Of a stretch of DNA of 45,494 bases, positions 7,802 through 24,474 are shown piece by piece. Numbering within the stretch: position 1 is the stretch's first letter; every line of letters begins with the position of its first letter. Source of the DNA: Candidatus Amunia macphersoniae (GTDB lineage: Bacteria > Chloroflexota > Dormibacteria > Aeolococcales > Aeolococcaceae); contig JAEKNN010000058.1 of NCBI GenBank assembly GCA_016464795.1, positions 64,966 through 110,459 of the forward strand. The letters are read 5' to 3'. The notes under the pieces were generated by a model. The model saw nothing but the letters and a program-made list of their open reading frames with translations. It searched no databases and was not told the DNA's origin. The position numbers and the translations under genes were made by a program.

Positions 7802-9067
7802 CTACACCTTCATCGTCTTGAGGACTCGGCGCATCAGGCCGCCCAGTGGCTGGTCGGCGTCGTCCTCGATCGAGATGGCGTGGTGGGCCAGCCCCATCGG
7901 GGTGACGTCCTGACTGCCCACCAGCAGACCTGTGCTGTCGAAGACGCGGTGCACGTCATTTGGCCCCAGCACTCGAACGGCCGGCGCGTGCCTCATCCGC
8001 AGAGACTGCGCCCAGTCGAGCGCGCTCAGCTGCTGGGCGACCTCAGGAAGGGCGGCACCGCCGCCGGCCAGGTAGATGCTGGCCGGCAGCTGCTCGCCGC
8101 CGGTCAGCTCCTCGAGGGTGAGCGACACACCCTGCGCCAGCACCTCGGCCGTCGGGGTCAACGCCTGGTGGGCGAGCGCGCGCTGCTCGGGGGCGAGGCG
8201 GCCCTCGCCGTGCGAGACCTTGTAGCGCTCGGCCTCTCCCATCGAGACCTGCAGCTCGCCGGCCAGGCGCTTGGTGAACGACCGACCCCCGAGCGCGAAC
8301 ATCCGAGTTGCCTCGATCCCGCCGTTGCGCACCAGGGCCACGTCGGTGGTGCCGCCCCCGATGTCCACGAAGATGCCGCCGCGCTCCTCGATGTCCTCGG
8401 TGTTGCAGCCGCGCGCCAGCGCATACGGTTCGGCGACGGTGGCCACCACCTCGAGGTCGAGCTCCTGGGCGATGGTCTGGAGGGCGCCGACGTGGTGCAG
8501 CGGCGCGAACGTGTTGAAGACGGTGATGTCAACAACGTTTCCCTGGAAGTCGATGGGGTTGGTCACCGCATACCCGTCGATGCGCACCGAGGTGATCGTG
8601 CTGTGGACCAGCTTGACGTTGACCTCGGCGACCCCCAGCTCGTGCGACATCTGGCGCACCGCTTCCTTGAGAGCACGCCGTTGGACCGCCTGCAGAGCGG
8701 TGGCGAGGTCCGCCTGGGTGATCCGAGCCTGGGGCTGCGGCCGCGGCATGGTCATGCTGGTGCTGAAGCCGCGGACCTGCTCACCGGCGATGCCCATGAC
8801 GGCCTGTCCGGGCACCACCTCGCACATGTCCTCGGCTTCGGTGAGCGCCCTGTCGCAGTTGTCGATCACCGACTGGATGTCGGCGACGGCTCCGCCCTGC
8901 ATGTCGCTGAGCGCCTGACGGATGCGCGAGGCGCCGATGATGATGCCCTTGTCCTCCTCGCGCTTGACGATCAGCGCCTTGACGAACTCGGTGCCGATGT
9001 CGAGGACTGTGTAGTGGGTGTTGAACTCAGCGCGGCGGCGGAGCAGGGAGAACTTGCGCTTGCTCAT
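7802..9067 (-). CDS. FtsA/PilM-like actin-fold ATPase
   Basis: This 421-residue protein has the actin/Hsp70 ATPase core of the FtsA/PilM/MreB superfamily. Phosphate-1 motif VLDIGTEFVK lies at 21-30, an SHS2-like insertion at about 85-190, phosphate-2 motif VDIGGGTTDVAL at 234-245, and the adenosine motif YLAGGGAALP at 332-341. The last residues (GGLMRRVLKTMKV) form a basic amphipathic tail like the membrane-targeting helix of FtsA. It is not evidently the cell-division ftsA, because no ftsZ, ftsQ or mur gene is nearby. Its ATG overlaps the alaS stop (ATGA), and the bitopic baseplate-J-like protein follows at once. A scaffold that links the membrane protein to cytosolic filaments is plausible but unproven. 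Confidence 0.85.
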   Translation of the reverse strand: MSKRKFSLLRRRAEFNTHYTVLDIGTEFVKALIVKREEDKGIIIGASRIRQALSDMQGGAVADIQSVIDNCDRALTEAEDMCEVVPGQAVMGIAGEQVRGFSTSMTMPRPQPQARITQADLATALQAVQRRALKEAVRQMSHELGVAEVNVKLVHSTITSVRIDGYAVTNPIDFQGNVVDITVFNTFAPLHHVGALQTIAQELDLEVVATVAEPYALARGCNTEDIEERGGIFVDIGGGTTDVALVRNGGIEATRMFALGGRSFTKRLAGELQVSMGEAERYKVSHGEGRLAPEQRALAHQALTPTAEVLAQGVSLTLEELTGGEQLPASIYLAGGGAALPEVAQQLSALDWAQSLRMRHAPAVRVLGPNDVHRVFDSTGLLVGSQDVTPMGLAHHAISIEDDADQPLGGLMRRVLKTMKV

Positions 9068-11676
9068 GGCTCATCTCCGCCGGCCTGCCGTCGCACCGTG
9101 TCGCGGATGCCGGAGAGGGCGCTCTGCCGCTGCACGAGGTCCTTGATGCCGCCCCGACCGAAGCCGGCATGGCCACCCCCCTTGGCGCCCATCAGCTGGG
9201 CGGCCGCCTTCGCCAGGTCGCCGGCGCGGATGTGGCGCGCCTGCGCCGCCGGGCCGACCTTGATGGCGAAGGTGTCACGGCCCATCACCACGGCCACCCC
9301 ATCGCCACCAAGCTGTTCGGCGAAGAGGCGGTCGATGACGTCGACGATGGCCTGCGCGTCGGCGTCGGACTCGACCAGCAGCACCGCGTAGGCGACGCCC
9401 CCGAGATCCTCCACCTTCGATGGCACCGCCGGCAGCGCCAGGCCGCCACCGCGACGCCTTGCCTCCTCGAGCTCCTTGGCGCCGCGGCGCACCTGCTCCT
9501 GGAGGCCGGCGACCCGCTCGGGCACCTCGGCCGGCCGTGCACGCAGGGCGCGGGCGGCGCTGAGCAGCGCCTCACCGGTCTCCTGCCAGCGCCGCTCCGC
9601 AGCCTCGCCCGCCACCATCTCGATGCGGCGCACGCCCTGGCCGATGCTGCTCTCTCCCACGATGATGGCGGCGCCGACATCGCCGGTGCGGTTCACATGA
9701 GTACCCCCGCAGAGCTCGCGCGACCAGCCTCCGAAGTCGACCACGCGAACACTCTCGGTGTACTTCTCGTCGATCAGCGCGATGGCGCCGCTCGCCTTTG
9801 CCTCCGACAGCGGCATCTGGTCGACGCTGCGTCGCAGGTTGGCTCGGATGTTGTGGTTGACCCGCGCCTCGATGTCGCGGAGCTCGTCGCGGGTCAGCGC
9901 GCGGTTGAACGAGAAGTCGAAGGTGCTGTGCTCGGGCCCCACGTAGGAGCCCCGCTGCACGATCCCGGCGCCGAGCACCTCGCGCAGGGCCTGGTTGAGG
10001 AAGTGGGTGGCGCTGTGGTGGCGTGCCACCCGGCTGCGGCGGTCGGCGTCGACGACGGCCCGGACGGCGATTCCGGTGGCGAGCGTTCCCTCCTCGACGC
10101 GCACCGAGTGGAGACGGGCGCCGCCGGCATGGGTGGTGCCGAGCACACTGGCCCGTCCGCCCTCGAAGCGCAGCTCCCCGATGTCCCCGACCTGGCCGCC
10201 GGCCTCCGCGTAGAAGGGGCTGGTGTCCAGGATCACGACGTCCGCGAGGCCAGCCTCCACGGCCTCGGTCTCCTCCGAGCCGCCGATGCGCACCACGGCG
10301 GCGTCGGCCTCGAGCGTGTCGTAGCCGACGAACCGCGTGTCGGGGAGCTGAGGGCCGCCCTCGAAGCCCACCTGCAGGTGGGCGGCACGGCTGCGCGCGC
10401 GTTGCGCGGCCATGGCGGCGTCGAAGCCCGCGCGGTCGACGGCCACCCCCCGCTCGGCGGCCATCTCGGCCGTCACCTCGATGGGCAGACCGTAGGTGTC
10501 ATGGAGCCGGAATGCCTCGTCTCCGGGGATGGTTGCGGACCCTGTGTCGAGCAGGACCGCGAGCCGGTCAGTGCCCGCGTCCAGGGTTCGTGTGAACGCC
10601 TCCTCCTCGGTCCCGAGGGTGCTCTCGACGAGCTCGCGGTTCTCGGCGATCTCAGGGTAGACGTCACCCATGATCGCCATCACCGCGGCCACGCCGGGGA
10701 CCAGGCCGCCGCGGAGGCCGACGCGCCTGCCGTGGACCAGGGCACGCCGGATCAGGCGACGGAGCACGTAGCCCCGGGCTTCGTTGCCCGGCACCACCCC
10801 ATCGGCGATCAGGAAGGTCGCCGCTCGGACGTGGTCGGCGAGCACGTGCAGGCCGGCCACCCGCTGCGAACCGGGAACCGCACCGCTGCGGGCTGCAAAG
10901 TTGGCGACGATGTCGCGGAACAGGTCGGTCTCGTAGTTGCTCCGCACCCCTTGGACGACGGCCACCAGCCGGTCGAGCCCCAAACCAGTGTCGACAGTTG
11001 GCTTGGGCAGTGGGGTTCTCCGGCCCGTCTCGTCCTGGTCGAACTCCATGAACACCAGGTTCCAGATCTCCACCCAGCGGTCGCCGGCACACTCATCGTC
11101 GGGGCGGCAGTTGGCGCGTCCGCACGAGCAGCGCCCCCCCCAGTCCCAGTAGATCTCGCTGTCGTAGCCGCAGGGACCGGTAGGCCCCGCCTGCCACCAA
11201 TTGTCGGTCAGCCGGGCGATGTGATCCCCAGGCACCCCGACCTCCCGCCAGATTCGCTCTGATTCGGCATCCTCGGGATAGATGCTGGGCCACAGTCGGG
11301 CCGCATCGAGGCCGTAGCCCTCGGTGAGGAGAGTCCACGCAAGCCTGATCGCGTCCTCTTTGAAGTAGTCCCCGATCGACCAGTTGCCGAGCATCTCGAA
11401 GAAGGTCTGATGAGTGGCATCACCGACCTCGGCGATGTCGTCCCACCGCAGCCCCTGTCCGCGAAAGCACTTCTGGCACGAGGCCAGCCGCGGGGACGGC
11501 GGGGTCAGCTCACCGGTGATGTATCGCTTGAGAGGCACCATCCCGGCCACGGTGAAGAGCAGGGACGGATCGTCATGCGTGATCAGTGACGCGCTCGGCA
11601 GACGATGGTGTCCGTGGTCTTCGAAGTAGGTGAGAAAGCGTTCCCGGATCTCGTAGCTGCGCAAACGACAGTCCAT
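9064..11676 (-). CDS. alaS: Alanyl-tRNA synthetase
   Basis: This 870-residue class II synthetase charges tRNA-Ala and edits mischarged Ser/Gly-tRNA-Ala. The catalytic core starts at once (YEIRERFLTYFEDHGH, then FFEMLGNWSIGDYF). The editing site has HSATH and CGGTH zinc-binding motifs, and the C-terminal DHHA1-type C-Ala domain ends in GAKGGGHAGFGRGG. A Cys-rich insert (CSCGRANC) is as in other AlaRS. I chose ATG at 11676 because conserved sequence begins there; a longer open frame continues 20 codons upstream but reads as low-complexity, non-conserved sequence. A -10-like box lies 60 nt upstream. alaS heads the long coupled operon that runs into mltG and the aro genes. Confidence 0.97.
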   Translation of the reverse strand: MDCRLRSYEIRERFLTYFEDHGHHRLPSASLITHDDPSLLFTVAGMVPLKRYITGELTPPSPRLASCQKCFRGQGLRWDDIAEVGDATHQTFFEMLGNWSIGDYFKEDAIRLAWTLLTEGYGLDAARLWPSIYPEDAESERIWREVGVPGDHIARLTDNWWQAGPTGPCGYDSEIYWDWGGRCSCGRANCRPDDECAGDRWVEIWNLVFMEFDQDETGRRTPLPKPTVDTGLGLDRLVAVVQGVRSNYETDLFRDIVANFAARSGAVPGSQRVAGLHVLADHVRAATFLIADGVVPGNEARGYVLRRLIRRALVHGRRVGLRGGLVPGVAAVMAIMGDVYPEIAENRELVESTLGTEEEAFTRTLDAGTDRLAVLLDTGSATIPGDEAFRLHDTYGLPIEVTAEMAAERGVAVDRAGFDAAMAAQRARSRAAHLQVGFEGGPQLPDTRFVGYDTLEADAAVVRIGGSEETEAVEAGLADVVILDTSPFYAEAGGQVGDIGELRFEGGRASVLGTTHAGGARLHSVRVEEGTLATGIAVRAVVDADRRSRVARHHSATHFLNQALREVLGAGIVQRGSYVGPEHSTFDFSFNRALTRDELRDIEARVNHNIRANLRRSVDQMPLSEAKASGAIALIDEKYTESVRVVDFGGWSRELCGGTHVNRTGDVGAAIIVGESSIGQGVRRIEMVAGEAAERRWQETGEALLSAARALRARPAEVPERVAGLQEQVRRGAKELEEARRRGGGLALPAVPSKVEDLGGVAYAVLLVESDADAQAIVDVIDRLFAEQLGGDGVAVVMGRDTFAIKVGPAAQARHIRAGDLAKAAAQLMGAKGGGHAGFGRGGIKDLVQRQSALSGIRDTVRRQAGGDEP

Positions 11677-11735
11677 TTGTGTGCGGCGTGTGTGCGGCCC
11701 GGGCACGACCCCATGGCTGCGGGGAAATCGCCCCA

Positions 11736-11741
11736 ATTGTA
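11736..11741 (-). promoter_or_regulatory. Candidate -10 box for the alaS operon
   Basis: The minus strand reads TACAAT here, close to the TATAAT consensus, inside the 96-nt gap between the sigma gene and alaS. A start point about 7 nt downstream would give a leader of roughly 50 nt. I see no good -35 at the usual distance. No T-box-like specifier structure fits in so short a leader. Confidence 0.4.
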
Positions 11742-11772
11742 ACCGGTCCCTGCGAATACGCCCGCTTGCCGG

Positions 11773-21038: not shown

Positions 21039-22049
21039 CTAGTGCGAGGCCAGGTAGTCGCCGAACTTCGAGAGAGTGTCCCCGAAGGTGGCTGCATCGG
21101 TGGCCTTGATGGCGATCCCGTTGGTGTCGGTGAACTTGGTCTCGGCCGTCCAGCAGAGCCCGTTGGCCGCATCCTTCTGGGCGACGAAGGTGAAGGCCTC
21201 GTCGAGGCCATTGGGGAAGGATCCCGCGGCCAGCCCGAGATAGTCAGTCAACTCCGTACCTGTGTACTGCCAGAGCATGTCGATGGTGCCGCCCTGCAGC
21301 GCCTGGCCCACCGCCTTGTCCTTGGCCTGGAAGGTGTAGTCGACTGTGAAGCCGTGGGCCTCGAGCACCAGCTTGGTCATGGTCGCCAGCAGCTGCTCTT
21401 CGGCGAAGCCCTTGCTGCCGATGCTCACGTGGGCTCCTCCGCCGGAGGATCCGGATGCGGCGGGGCAGCCGCTGCCCGAGCCGTTGGTGCCGCCGCCACC
21501 GCTGAAGCTGGAGGCGAGGAAGCCGTTCTGGGTCAACCATGCCTGGGCCACGTCGGAGACCTTCATGTTCTGGATCTCGACCTGGGCGTTGAGGGAGACC
21601 ATGGTGTTGGTGTCGAGCTTGGCAGCGACCGGGGCCATCAGGTTGGCGATCGCCGGGTACTTCTGCAGCACGGTCTGACGCACCACCAGGCCGACGTTGT
21701 CAGGTGGGAAGAGGTTCTTGTCGTCCTTCAGAACGTACAGCTTGTTGGCCTGGATGCCCGAGTCGGTGGTGAACACCTCTCCGGCCGTGCATTGTCCATT
21801 GCCGATGCTCTTCTCGGCCGTGTTGCCGATGTCGACATAGGTTGGCTTGCTGAACGCGGCGTTGTAGGTCTTGGCGAGCCCGGGCAGACCGTCTGCCCTG
21901 GTCCTGAACTCCGACAGGATGCAGACCTTGATCGACGAGGTGGCCGGCCCACTCCCTCCGTTGCTGTTGCTGGGTGTGCTTCCACCGCCGCAGGCGCTGA
22001 CAGCGCCGGGAACTACCAGCAACATCGCTGCAATTGCTTTCCGGTTCAT
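21039..22049 (-). CDS. OpuC/ProX-like solute-binding lipoprotein, circularly permuted
   Basis: This 336-residue protein should capture glycine betaine, choline or a related osmolyte for the adjacent ABC transporter. It has a signal peptide with lipobox VSAC (Cys20), so it is a lipoprotein. The order of its halves is swapped. Residues 39-178 match the usual C-terminal half (SEFRTRADGLPGLAKTY, FTTDSGIQANKLYVLKDD, FPPDNVGLVVR, VAQAWLTQNGFL). Residues 206-336 match the usual N-terminal half (VSIGSKGFAEEQLL, LQGGTIDMLWQYTGTEL). A Gly/Ser linker (about 179-205) containing GSGCPAASGSSGGG joins them. ATG at 22049 is preceded by GGAGAGGAAG, a good ribosome-binding site, which decides the start over an ATG-like frame upstream. 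It is the last gene of the transporter operon. Confidence 0.9.
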   Translation of the reverse strand: MNRKAIAAMLLVVPGAVSACGGGSTPSNSNGGSGPATSSIKVCILSEFRTRADGLPGLAKTYNAAFSKPTYVDIGNTAEKSIGNGQCTAGEVFTTDSGIQANKLYVLKDDKNLFPPDNVGLVVRQTVLQKYPAIANLMAPVAAKLDTNTMVSLNAQVEIQNMKVSDVAQAWLTQNGFLASSFSGGGGTNGSGSGCPAASGSSGGGAHVSIGSKGFAEEQLLATMTKLVLEAHGFTVDYTFQAKDKAVGQALQGGTIDMLWQYTGTELTDYLGLAAGSFPNGLDEAFTFVAQKDAANGLCWTAETKFTDTNGIAIKATDAATFGDTLSKFGDYLASH

Positions 22050-22065
22050 CGTGACTTCCTCTCCA

Positions 22066-22824
22066 TTACGTGCTGATCCGTCGTGGGACAACGATGCGCT
22101 CCACCAGTGAAAGCGCCCAGTCGGCGAGCAGTGCGAGAGCGGCCACCATGACGGCCCCCACGAAGATGATGCGATTGGAAATGTTGATGCCCGATGCGAT
22201 CACCACGCCGAGGCCGCCGCCGCCAATGAAGCTTCCGAGGGTCGCCGTGCCGATGATCAACACCAGGGAGGTGCGCAGTCCGGCCAGGATCAACGGCGAC
22301 GCCAGTGGCAGCTGCACCCGGATCAATGCCTGAGCGCGGGTCATCCCCATGCCCCGCGCCGCCTCCACAGCCGCCGGATCGACCCCCTGGATGCCCGCCA
22401 CCGTGTTGCGAAGCACCGGCAGGGTTCCGTATGCGACCAGGGCGATGACTGTCGGCTCCACACCGAGGCCGAGGAAGGCATACAGCAGCACCAGGAAGCC
22501 GATGCCGGGCACGGCCTGGCCGAGGTTTGCCAACAGGAAAACAGGGATCCGAACGCGCCTCCCCGCACCCGCGATGGCGACGCCGACCGGGACCCCGATG
22601 GCCGCCACCAGCGCGAACGACAGGCCACTGAGGTAGAGGTGTTCGACCAGCCTGCCGAGCAGGAAGTCCTGGGTGAGGACCTGATCGTCGGCGAGCGAGC
22701 CGCTGATGCTTCGGTAGATCGCGTAGGACACGGCCAGGCCCGCTGCCACAGCGATGGGGACGGCGAAGAGGCGCACCCGCTCGACATCCAGGTGCCGGGT
22801 GCGAGTGCTGACCACCTGGCTCAC
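22066..22824 (-). CDS. OpuC-like ABC transporter permease (second)
   Basis: This 252-residue inner-membrane permease belongs to the OpuCB/OpuCD-type family for compatible solutes. About six hydrophobic segments are visible, with the cytosolic EAA loop VEAARGMGMTRAQALIRVQLP at about 153-173 (only parts quoted; Glu-Ala-Ala then Gly) that docks on the ATPase. It has a short charged N-terminal extension before the first helix. It starts GTG at 22824, overlapping the ATPase stop by 4 nt (GTGA). It pairs with the similar permease at the head of the operon, so the channel is probably a heterodimer. Confidence 0.92.
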   Translation of the reverse strand: MSQVVSTRTRHLDVERVRLFAVPIAVAAGLAVSYAIYRSISGSLADDQVLTQDFLLGRLVEHLYLSGLSFALVAAIGVPVGVAIAGAGRRVRIPVFLLANLGQAVPGIGFLVLLYAFLGLGVEPTVIALVAYGTLPVLRNTVAGIQGVDPAAVEAARGMGMTRAQALIRVQLPLASPLILAGLRTSLVLIIGTATLGSFIGGGGLGVVIASGINISNRIIFVGAVMVAALALLADWALSLVERIVVPRRIST

Positions 22825-23759
22825 TGCGATGCCCGCCGGATGGTGTCTGCGTCCACCACCCCGAGCGTCGTGCCTCCCTCGACCACCAGGACGCGCCCGT
22901 CGCGGGCGCGGAGCACGGCGTCGAGCGCATCTCGGAGGGTGACATCGGCGTCGACCCTCTCGGCAGGGGAACGCTCGCCGTCGAGCCCGGCGAGCTCGAT
23001 GTCGCGAACCTTGATGAGCGAGAGCCGACGCACCATCCGGCCCTCGCCGAGGAAGTCGGCCACGAAGGAGGACGCCGGCCTGGCCAAGAGTTGGGCAGGC
23101 GTCGCGTACTGCTCGAGAGTGCCCCCGCGCGAGAAGAGTGCCACCCTATCTCCGAGCCGGATGGCCTCGTCGATGTCATGGGTGACGAAGACGATGGTCT
23201 TGCGGACCACCTGCTGGAGGCGGAGCAACTCGTTCTGCAGCCGTTCGCGCGCGATCGGGTCGATGGCACCGAAGGGCTCGTCCATCAACAGAATGTTGGG
23301 GTTGACGCCGAGGGCCCGAGCGACACCGACGCGCTGTCGCTCGCCGCCGCTGAGCTCGGCGGGCAGGCGTCTGGCGTAATCGGCCGCGGGCAGCCCGACC
23401 AGGTCGAGGAGCTCGTCGACGCGCGCGGCGATGCGCGGCTTGTCCCAGCCGGCGAGGCGTGGAACTGTGGCCACGTTCTCGGCGACCGTGTAGTGCGGGA
23501 ACAGGCCGACCTGCTGAATGACGTACCCGATGGAGCGGCGCAGCTCGTTGATGTCGACGGAGGCGGTGTCGGTGTCGTCGATGTGGATGGTTCCGGAGGT
23601 GGGTTCGATCAGGCGGCTGATCATCTTCAGAGAGGTCGTCTTGCCACACCCAGACGGACCAACGAACATGACGATCTCGCCGGAGGGGACCTCCAGAGAG
23701 AGCTCGCGAACCGCCTCGGTGCTCCCGTATCGCTTGGTGACTCGATCGAACGTGATCAC
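22821..23759 (-). CDS. OpuC-like ABC transporter ATPase with CBS segment
   Basis: This 312-residue ATPase powers the compatible-solute importer. Walker A GPSGCGKT is at 34-41, signature LSGGE at 136-140, Walker B ILLMDEP at 156-162 and the switch His194 in THD. The C-terminal part (about 240-310) has a single CBS-like unit (VTLRDALDAVLRARDGRVLVV, in two parts of the motif). Characterised OpuCA/OpuAA proteins carry two CBS units that sense ionic strength, so this one is short of one. It starts GTG at 23759, overlapping the upstream permease stop (GTGA). Confidence 0.93.
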   Translation of the reverse strand: MITFDRVTKRYGSTEAVRELSLEVPSGEIVMFVGPSGCGKTTSLKMISRLIEPTSGTIHIDDTDTASVDINELRRSIGYVIQQVGLFPHYTVAENVATVPRLAGWDKPRIAARVDELLDLVGLPAADYARRLPAELSGGERQRVGVARALGVNPNILLMDEPFGAIDPIARERLQNELLRLQQVVRKTIVFVTHDIDEAIRLGDRVALFSRGGTLEQYATPAQLLARPASSFVADFLGEGRMVRRLSLIKVRDIELAGLDGERSPAERVDADVTLRDALDAVLRARDGRVLVVEGGTTLGVVDADTIRRASQ

Positions 23760-24406
23760 GTCGCCGCCACCGCGACTCGTCCCTTGGACAGCCCCCGCTG
23801 GGCGGCCGCGAGCACGACGTCGGCAACGATGCCGATGAGCGCAACCGGAAGGACCCCGGCAAGCACCTGCTCGAGGGTGCCTGTGTCGCGCGTCAGAGCT
23901 GCGAAGATCGGCTGACCCAGGTCGTTGGCGCCCACGGCCGCGCCCACGGTCGCGATGGCGACCACCATCACCGTGGCCTGCCGGAGACCCGCCAGGATCA
24001 CCGGCACTGCCAGCGGCAGCTCGACGCGGGCCAGCACCTGCAGGCTGGTCATGCCCATTCCCCGGGCGGCCTCGGCGACGGCTGCATCGACGGCCACGAT
24101 CCCCTCTCGGGTATTGCGCACGATCGGCAGCAGCGCGTACAGGATGAGGCCGACGATCACCGGGGGGTCGCCAAGACCGACCCAGATCGACAGCAGTCCG
24201 AACAGCGCGAAGCTCGGCACCGTCAGGATGATGCTCGTCAGCGCAAGGATGAAGGCGGCGAAACGGTCGGATCGCGCGGCCACGATGCCGAGCAGCAGGC
24301 CAGCGGCCGCGGCCACCAGGACGCAGATGCCCACGATCTTGAGGTGGTCGAGCACCTGGGGCCTGAGGGTGTCCCAATTGTCGACGATATACCGGAGGGT
24401 GCTCAT
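23756..24406 (-). CDS. OpuC-like ABC transporter permease (first)
   Basis: This 216-residue permease heads the transporter operon. It has five to six membrane helices and the EAA loop AEAARGMGMTSLQVLARVELP, closely resembling the loop of the second permease, which suggests an old duplication. The ATG at 24406 was chosen because conserved sequence (STLRYIVDNWDTLRPQVLDHL) starts there; a longer frame extends upstream as Arg-rich, unconserved sequence. A TATAAA box lies about 70 nt upstream. No clear regulator gene is adjacent. Confidence 0.92.
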   Translation of the reverse strand: MSTLRYIVDNWDTLRPQVLDHLKIVGICVLVAAAAGLLLGIVAARSDRFAAFILALTSIILTVPSFALFGLLSIWVGLGDPPVIVGLILYALLPIVRNTREGIVAVDAAVAEAARGMGMTSLQVLARVELPLAVPVILAGLRQATVMVVAIATVGAAVGANDLGQPIFAALTRDTGTLEQVLAGVLPVALIGIVADVVLAAAQRGLSKGRVAVAAT

Positions 24407-24474
24407 TGAGAGTCGCCCTCGCGGTGTGGCGGCCAGTGCTCTGTCGCGGGAGCCCGCCTGCACCCGCACTGCCG

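What the first reader, a model, noticed from the sequence alone, without database searches (positions are those of the whole stretch)
21039..22049. Circularly permuted OpuC-type solute-binding lipoprotein
The usual family order is N-half (GSKxFTEQ, YTGT) followed by C-half (DGLPGL, TTDxxI, VLxDD, FPP). Here the order is reversed in a single frame: signal peptide and Cys20, then the C-half (39-178), then a Gly/Ser linker, then the N-half (206-336). The linker segment GSGCPAASGSSGGG looks like the mature N-terminus of a lipoprotein, as if two tandem binding-protein genes fused and complementary halves were lost. The gene sits in an intact permease-ATPase-permease operon and has a good ribosome-binding site, so it is probably functional. 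I know of no described natural permutation in this family.
Basis: partly seen in the sequence, partly recalled or inferred. Interest (0 to 1): 0.85.

Follow-up and report, generated by a model that had tools for sequence, protein, structure and literature searches.

The report
Repeatedly permuted ABC solute-binding lipoprotein
In a bacterium related to Candidatus Aeolococcus, a predicted lipoprotein that likely captures solutes for a neighbouring ABC importer has its two halves encoded in swapped order, and because family trees place the same swap in several separate lineages of relatives, this rearrangement of a protein fold likely arose repeatedly.

The parts
21039..22049 (-). Circularly permuted solute-binding lipoprotein gene (336 aa)
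21990..22049 (-). Signal peptide and lipobox, residues 1-20 (VSA-C20)
   Evidence: read from the sequence; C20 invariant in 60 aligned permuted proteins
21516..21935 (-). Family C-half, residues 39-178, now first
   Evidence: PF04069 positions 114-257 at residues 39-174; OsmF profile to residue 178
21435..21515 (-). Gly/Ser linker, residues 179-205, joining the old C- and N-termini; holds C195, the conserved second Cys
   Evidence: aligns with the post-lipobox tail of canonical relatives; a Cys in this stretch in 53 of 53 permuted subfamily-A rows counted
21042..21434 (-). Family N-half, residues 206-336, now last; ends at YLASH, where canonical proteins continue into the C-half
   Evidence: PF04069 positions 2-108; junctions
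22055..22064 (-). Ribosome-binding site GGAGAGGAAG, 5 nt before the ATG
   Evidence: read from the sequence
22066..22824 (-). Permease 2
   Evidence: PF00528, 86.1 bits
22821..23759 (-). ATPase, ProV type (GTG start at 23759 is my reading)
   Evidence: PF00005 127.4 bits; TIGR01186 304.1 bits, under its cut-off of 326.6
23756..24469 (-). Permease 1
   Evidence: PF00528, 85.7 bits

Best explanation
The gene encodes a predicted lipoprotein whose two PF04069 halves stand in C-half, linker, N-half order: a circular permutation of the OpuC/OsmF-type solute-binding fold that is predicted to form the usual two lobes, would serve the ABC importer encoded next to it, and likely arose several times independently among relatives. 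Shown: order, operon, close canonical relatives in the same operon slot, separate placement of permuted groups in trees. Predicted: the fold. Inferred: (1) The cut lies in lobe 2, in the loop between the helix ending YLASH and the strand starting VCILSEF; both lobe-to-lobe crossings (around D308-N310 and D117 by alignment) stay covalently intact, so closure on ligand should be unchanged. (2) The old termini, both in lobe 1, are joined by the former N-terminal tail, whose C195 probably forms a disulfide with C299. (3) The lipid anchor moves from lobe 1 to lobe 2. (4) At gene level: tandem duplication and in-frame fusion, then loss of the first N-half and the last C-half. The ligand is unknown and probably not a quaternary amine.
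Against: No assay. Three of the five subfamily-A groups rest on one or two metagenome proteins (P0043, P0174, P0178+P0190). The subgroups were named after the tree was seen, which the AU test does not allow for; the g11-P0043 union is rejected only at p 0.034, not safe after ten tests. Trees cannot tell gains from reversions: canonical P0247 falls inside a permuted clade with weak support; it was left out of the joint tree. P0283 with P0287, and G232 with G420, are not separable (p 0.233 and 0.43). Starred branches force only 4 changes in the N-half tree and 3 in the C-half tree. The signal peptide of L030 is nearest (95%) to canonical genes of its own genus whose halves are only about 55-67% alike, a sign of mixed segment histories. 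dN/dS is 0.50-0.70 between the two permuted genera with no larger dS, so dS is near saturation and the ratio is rough.
Confidence: 0.8

Rival explanations
1. One ancient permutation, spread by horizontal transfer and later overwritten by gene conversion with local canonical genes, so that it only looks recurrent.
For: Same cut loop in the groups compared; a nearly identical g11-type gene sits in a genome of another family (G090), though that contig may be misbinned; the signal peptide of L030 and its halves point to different canonical relatives.
Against: N-half and C-half each separately give 5 and 6 order changes, so both halves would need replacing each time. In 3 of 5 subfamily-A groups (g11, P0043, P0174) the best signal-peptide match is also among the best half matches; in g1 and P0178/P0190 it is not.
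Confidence: 0.15
2. Fewer gains plus several reversions from permuted to canonical order.
For: Canonical P0247 and the canonical clade beside P0283/P0287 could be reversions.
Against: Each reversion is itself a second permutation, so the number of order changes stays the same. All 27 solved F-III sequences listed are canonical, and 64 of 76 genomes of the class with PF04069 showed no reversed copy.
Confidence: 0.2
3. A decaying fusion remnant of two broken genes with no function.
For: Nothing beyond the odd order.
Against: Open frame, intact lipobox, ribosome-binding site, dN/dS 0.15-0.23, invariant motif residues, sole PF04069 gene found in the genome.
Confidence: 0.03

Closest known systems
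B. subtilis OpuAC (PDB 2B4L)
   Same: Same Pfam family name, same C-half-first order, best full-length structural match of both permuted models; lipid-anchored (PMC2861598, passage)
   Different: No sequence match to our protein (absent from the 27 hits; 14% identity on structure); permuted against L. lactis OpuAC, so a separate event in another branch
Canonical OpuCC/OsmF/EgtUC (cluster F-III)
   Same: Each half matches by sequence
   Different: N-half first in the 27 solved sequences listed; the aromatic cage Y341/Y419/Y443 of EgtUC (PMC9732360, passage) is N310, A78 (or E79, alignments differ) and D117 here
Treponema TpMglB-2 (Tp0684), 'Type Ic' binding proteins
   Same: Circularly permuted, lipid-anchored ABC solute-binding protein shown to bind its ligand (PMC4990184, passages)
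   Different: Cluster B sugar-binding fold, different cut, reported as one topological sub-class
Glycine-betaine-binding permutation set of CPSARST (2B4L, 1R9L, 1SW1)
   Same: Permutation inside the glycine-betaine-binding proteins published in 2008 (PMC2395249, section 11)
   Different: Distant structures, under 24% identity; no recent or repeated events described in that section

Membership tests
Pfam PF04069 OpuAC superfamily | Profile score above the curated cut-off | tested here: met
   136.2 against 21.2 bits
OpuC/OsmF-type (cluster F-III) binding protein | Best sequence matches among F-III proteins | tested here: met
   EgtUC, OpuBC/OpuCC, OsmF, A. fulgidus ProX (cluster of EgtUC, OpuBC, OpuCC and AfProX from PMC9732360; of OsmF recalled)
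OpuC/OsmF-type (cluster F-III) binding protein | N-half before C-half | tested here: not met
OpuC/OsmF-type (cluster F-III) binding protein | Aromatic cage (EgtUC Y341, Y419, Y443) | tested here: not met
   Columns hold N310, A78/E79 and D117. Mapped through the motifs NNTY and FPPY of 6uru and Lmo1422, 4z7e; EgtUC itself was not aligned residue by residue, and the middle position is uncertain by one residue. Same in canonical relatives
OsmF (NCBIfam NF049931) | Equivalog cut-off 400 bits | tested here: not met
   99.1 bits
Permuted OpuAC topology (B. subtilis type) | Sequential full-length match to 2B4L/2B4M | tested here: met
Permuted OpuAC topology (B. subtilis type) | Common descent with B. 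subtilis OpuAC after the permutation | tested here: not met
   Closest relatives are canonical; no hit to 2B4L; 2B4L's relative 3L6G is canonical. OpuAC was not placed in a tree with our proteins
ABC-importer lipoprotein | Lipobox and cognate permease/ATPase | tested here: met
   sequence, operon; lipidation itself not testable
Glycine-betaine transporter | Binds and imports betaine | not testable with these tools
   needs an assay; cage loss argues against

The most novel reading that the evidence does not exclude
A single loop in lobe 2 of this solute-binding fold is a repeatedly used topological switch: in one phylum the same circular permutation has been fixed about eight times, each time in place in the transporter operon, because it moves the lipid anchor from lobe 1 to lobe 2 and changes how the binding protein is presented to its importer.
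Probability: 0.35. Interest if true: 0.8.

Novelty: new variant of a known kind. Interest (0 to 1): 0.62.

Why it matters
The natural circular permutations in the papers I saw are between distant proteins. Here permuted and unpermuted proteins with up to about 85% identity per half exist side by side among relatives, and in the window's family they hold the same operon slot. That makes the open question of how permutations arise, and whether they are neutral or selected, directly testable, and gives natural designs for permuted binding proteins and sensors. It also warns that 'osmoprotectant/betaine' labels on this branch rest on homology alone.

Tried and rejected
P0232 (383 aa, N-C-N) looked like the missing intermediate; a sliding comparison shows canonical-type sequence on the left and 100% identity to L030 on the right from about residue 256, with the switch in a stretch that fits both: probable assembly chimera, dropped. 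P0117 (511 aa) looks like a frameshifted copy running into proS; dropped. Tandem binding-protein genes: one binding-protein match in each of the 18 regions. A Cys-as-second-lipobox reading of the linker: rejected. Out-of-phylum look in 72,556 plasmid records: 530 with a match, none with one place covering 80% or more of the permuted query (20 of 530 listed); this does not exclude permuted genes with diverged halves, and I did not sort those records by order. Foldseek gave canonical F-III structures low scores in sequence order, as expected for a permutation. Papers: in the listings of searches and the passages I opened I saw no permutation described in this branch or in Dormiibacterota; most subscription papers are not held. 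PMC2395249: section 11 whole plus passages. PMC10087775, PMC4990184, PMC9732360, PMC2861598: passages only.

Rows dropped: P0052, P0246, P0248, P0250, P0254 and L094_G064 (short halves) from trees and residue counts; P0232; L026_G003 (long branch) and the L028 outgroup from the AU test and the 41-row tree; P0247 from the joint tree. Searches began from permuted queries and list only the best 120 hits, so permuted proteins are over-represented (101 of 324 distinct proteins). The match list is cut, so permuted genes split into two matches may be missed there.

Full report
WHAT IS THERE. The gene at 21039-22049(-) is a single open frame of 336 aa. It carries a signal peptide with lipobox VSA-C20, then the PF04069 C-half (profile 114-257 at residues 39-174), a Gly/Ser-rich linker, then the PF04069 N-half (profile 2-108). 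It lies 16 nt after permease 2, in a permease-ATPase-permease-SBP operon between ispG and proS. It is the only PF04069 gene found in its genome, which is about 91% complete. The nearest named relatives are MAGs of Candidatus Dormiibacterota (some titled Chloroflexi), one of them Candidatus Aeolococcus gillhamiae, whose contig has the same length and match as G002:C119, a genome of the window's genus.

RECENT AND RECURRENT. In the family of the window, canonical relatives match each half at roughly 50-80% identity. In 12 of 13 subfamily-A regions, permuted or canonical, the binding-protein gene stands beside permease 2; the 13th contig is too short to tell. In a scan of 110 genomes of the class, 76 had PF04069; I count reversed order in 12 of those 76 (G000, G001, G002, G013, G018, G050, G056, G060, G064, G072, G090, G093, order checked on ORFs), of which G090 may be a misbinned contig. 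In a draw of 400 genomes of the phylum, 158 matched; nine gave a full-length single-frame match to the permuted model, two of them (G232, G420) from another class (list cut). Both were confirmed as C-N by half-profiles, while the 18 other regions fetched with them were N-C.

Trees were built on N- and C-halves set in one order. Subfamily A: 36 permuted of 89 representatives need 6 order changes, 5 forced by starred branches; a single permuted clade is rejected, p-AU 3.5e-48 (36 against 51 rows). A careful tree of 41 rows (10 permuted) needs 5, with 5 at both the 5% and 95% points of the bootstrap trees and 5 forced; the N-half alone needs 5 (4 forced) and the C-half alone 6 (3 forced). All ten unions of two of the five groups are rejected, with p from 8.7e-9 to 0.034, the weakest being g11 with P0043; the groups were named after the tree was seen. 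Subfamily B: 24 permuted of 64 representatives need 3 changes (2 forced), one clade rejected at p 0.00087. In a careful tree 9 permuted of 28 rows need 4 (bootstrap 3-5, 3 forced); the L030 group is separable from P0283 (p 3.0e-5) and from P0287 (p 3.2e-4), but those two are not separable from each other (p 0.233). With other classes added, 11 permuted of 48 rows need 6 changes (bootstrap 5-6, 3 forced); G232 and G420 are separable from the P0283/P0287 set but not from each other (p 0.43). They were not tested against L030 or subfamily A by AU; a fully supported branch parts them from subfamily B. One joint quick tree of all (21 permuted of 71 rows, P0247 left out) needs 9 changes, 7 forced. 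Five, two and one make eight groups; seven if the weakest test is not trusted. These are order changes: some may be reversions, and canonical P0247 sits inside a permuted clade with weak support.

JUNCTIONS. In the groups compared the protein ends where canonical ones run on into the C-half: canonical P0031 YLASHPGTKICILSEF; the window protein ends YLASH and starts the C-half at KVCILSEF. In subfamily B: canonical P0247 LSDLSSVASQMTLGG; permuted L030 ends LSDLAGTA and starts PIASKMTLGG. G232 and G420 end ISDLAKPAS and ISDLAKPAP and start IASQMALGG and IASQLSLAG. The linker of subfamily A repeats the canonical tail around its second Cys: P0043 linker TSNCPAGSGSSGSGAHVSIGSK against canonical P0181 ATCPAGSGSDGGGAHVSIGSK. 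That Cys (C195 here) is present in 53 of 53 permuted subfamily-A rows and tracks C299: of 8 canonical rows without C299, 6 lack the tail Cys; of 161 with C299, 3 lack it (two of these are proteins under 275 aa and one lies at a contig end, so they may be truncated). A C195-C299 disulfide is inferred.

SIGNAL PEPTIDES. In g11, P0043 and P0174 the best canonical signal-peptide match is also among the best half matches; in g1 and P0178/P0190 it is not. The signal peptide of L030 is 95% identical to canonical genes of its own genus whose halves are much less alike, while its halves are nearest P0247 and P0249. So segment histories are not uniform, and some recombination cannot be excluded.

WHERE THE CUT LIES. 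EgtUC residues N339, Y341 and Y443 lie in the two interdomain linkers (PMC9732360, passage). Through the motifs NNTY and FPPY they correspond to D308, N310 and D117 (EgtUC itself was not aligned residue by residue). Two predicted helices, 316-322 and 326-335, follow D308-N310, so the cut is by inference after the first crossing, inside lobe 2, and both crossings stay intact. The lipid anchor would then hang on lobe 2 instead of lobe 1. The Treponema authors suggested that tethering may drive such changes (PMC4990184, passage); a link to selection here is speculation.

FUNCTION. D308 and D117 are invariant and N310 nearly so (D in one canonical subfamily-B row) in both arrangements over 363 rows, as E47, R51, F215, E217 and Y262 nearly are. 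These motifs therefore survive the permutation, but the tyrosine cage is gone, so a quaternary amine is an unlikely ligand. dN/dS among the three permuted genus members is 0.15-0.23, and 0.35 between the two g11 members, which fits a working protein; between the genera it is 0.50-0.70 with saturated dS. Binding and transport are untested.

VERDICT. The claim that no natural permutation is described in the family is wrong. The stronger finding is that the same permutation recurs in close relatives.

Noticed in passing
L045 (G003:C57), 8515-11759 against ispG/proS: In a fourth genome of the genus the whole operon lies between ispG and proS but inverted, with a canonical binding protein only about 49-58% identical per half: likely local operon inversion or replacement.
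   Followed up: partly
L091 / L041 (G090:C136): A g11-type permuted gene nearly identical to that of G018 in a MAG of another family; both records come from the same CF_ MAG series: misbinned contig or recent transfer.
   Followed up: partly
P0232: N-C-N protein made of a canonical-type left part and a right part identical to L030; probable assembly chimera.
   Followed up: yes
P0248, P0250: Permuted subfamily-B proteins with about 32 residues missing from the C-half; maybe degraded genes or assembly errors.
   Followed up: no
window 21039-22049 and the subfamily A and B relatives counted: Aromatic cage for quaternary amines replaced by conserved D-x-N and D: a transporter branch of unknown ligand labelled as osmoprotectant.
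   Followed up: partly
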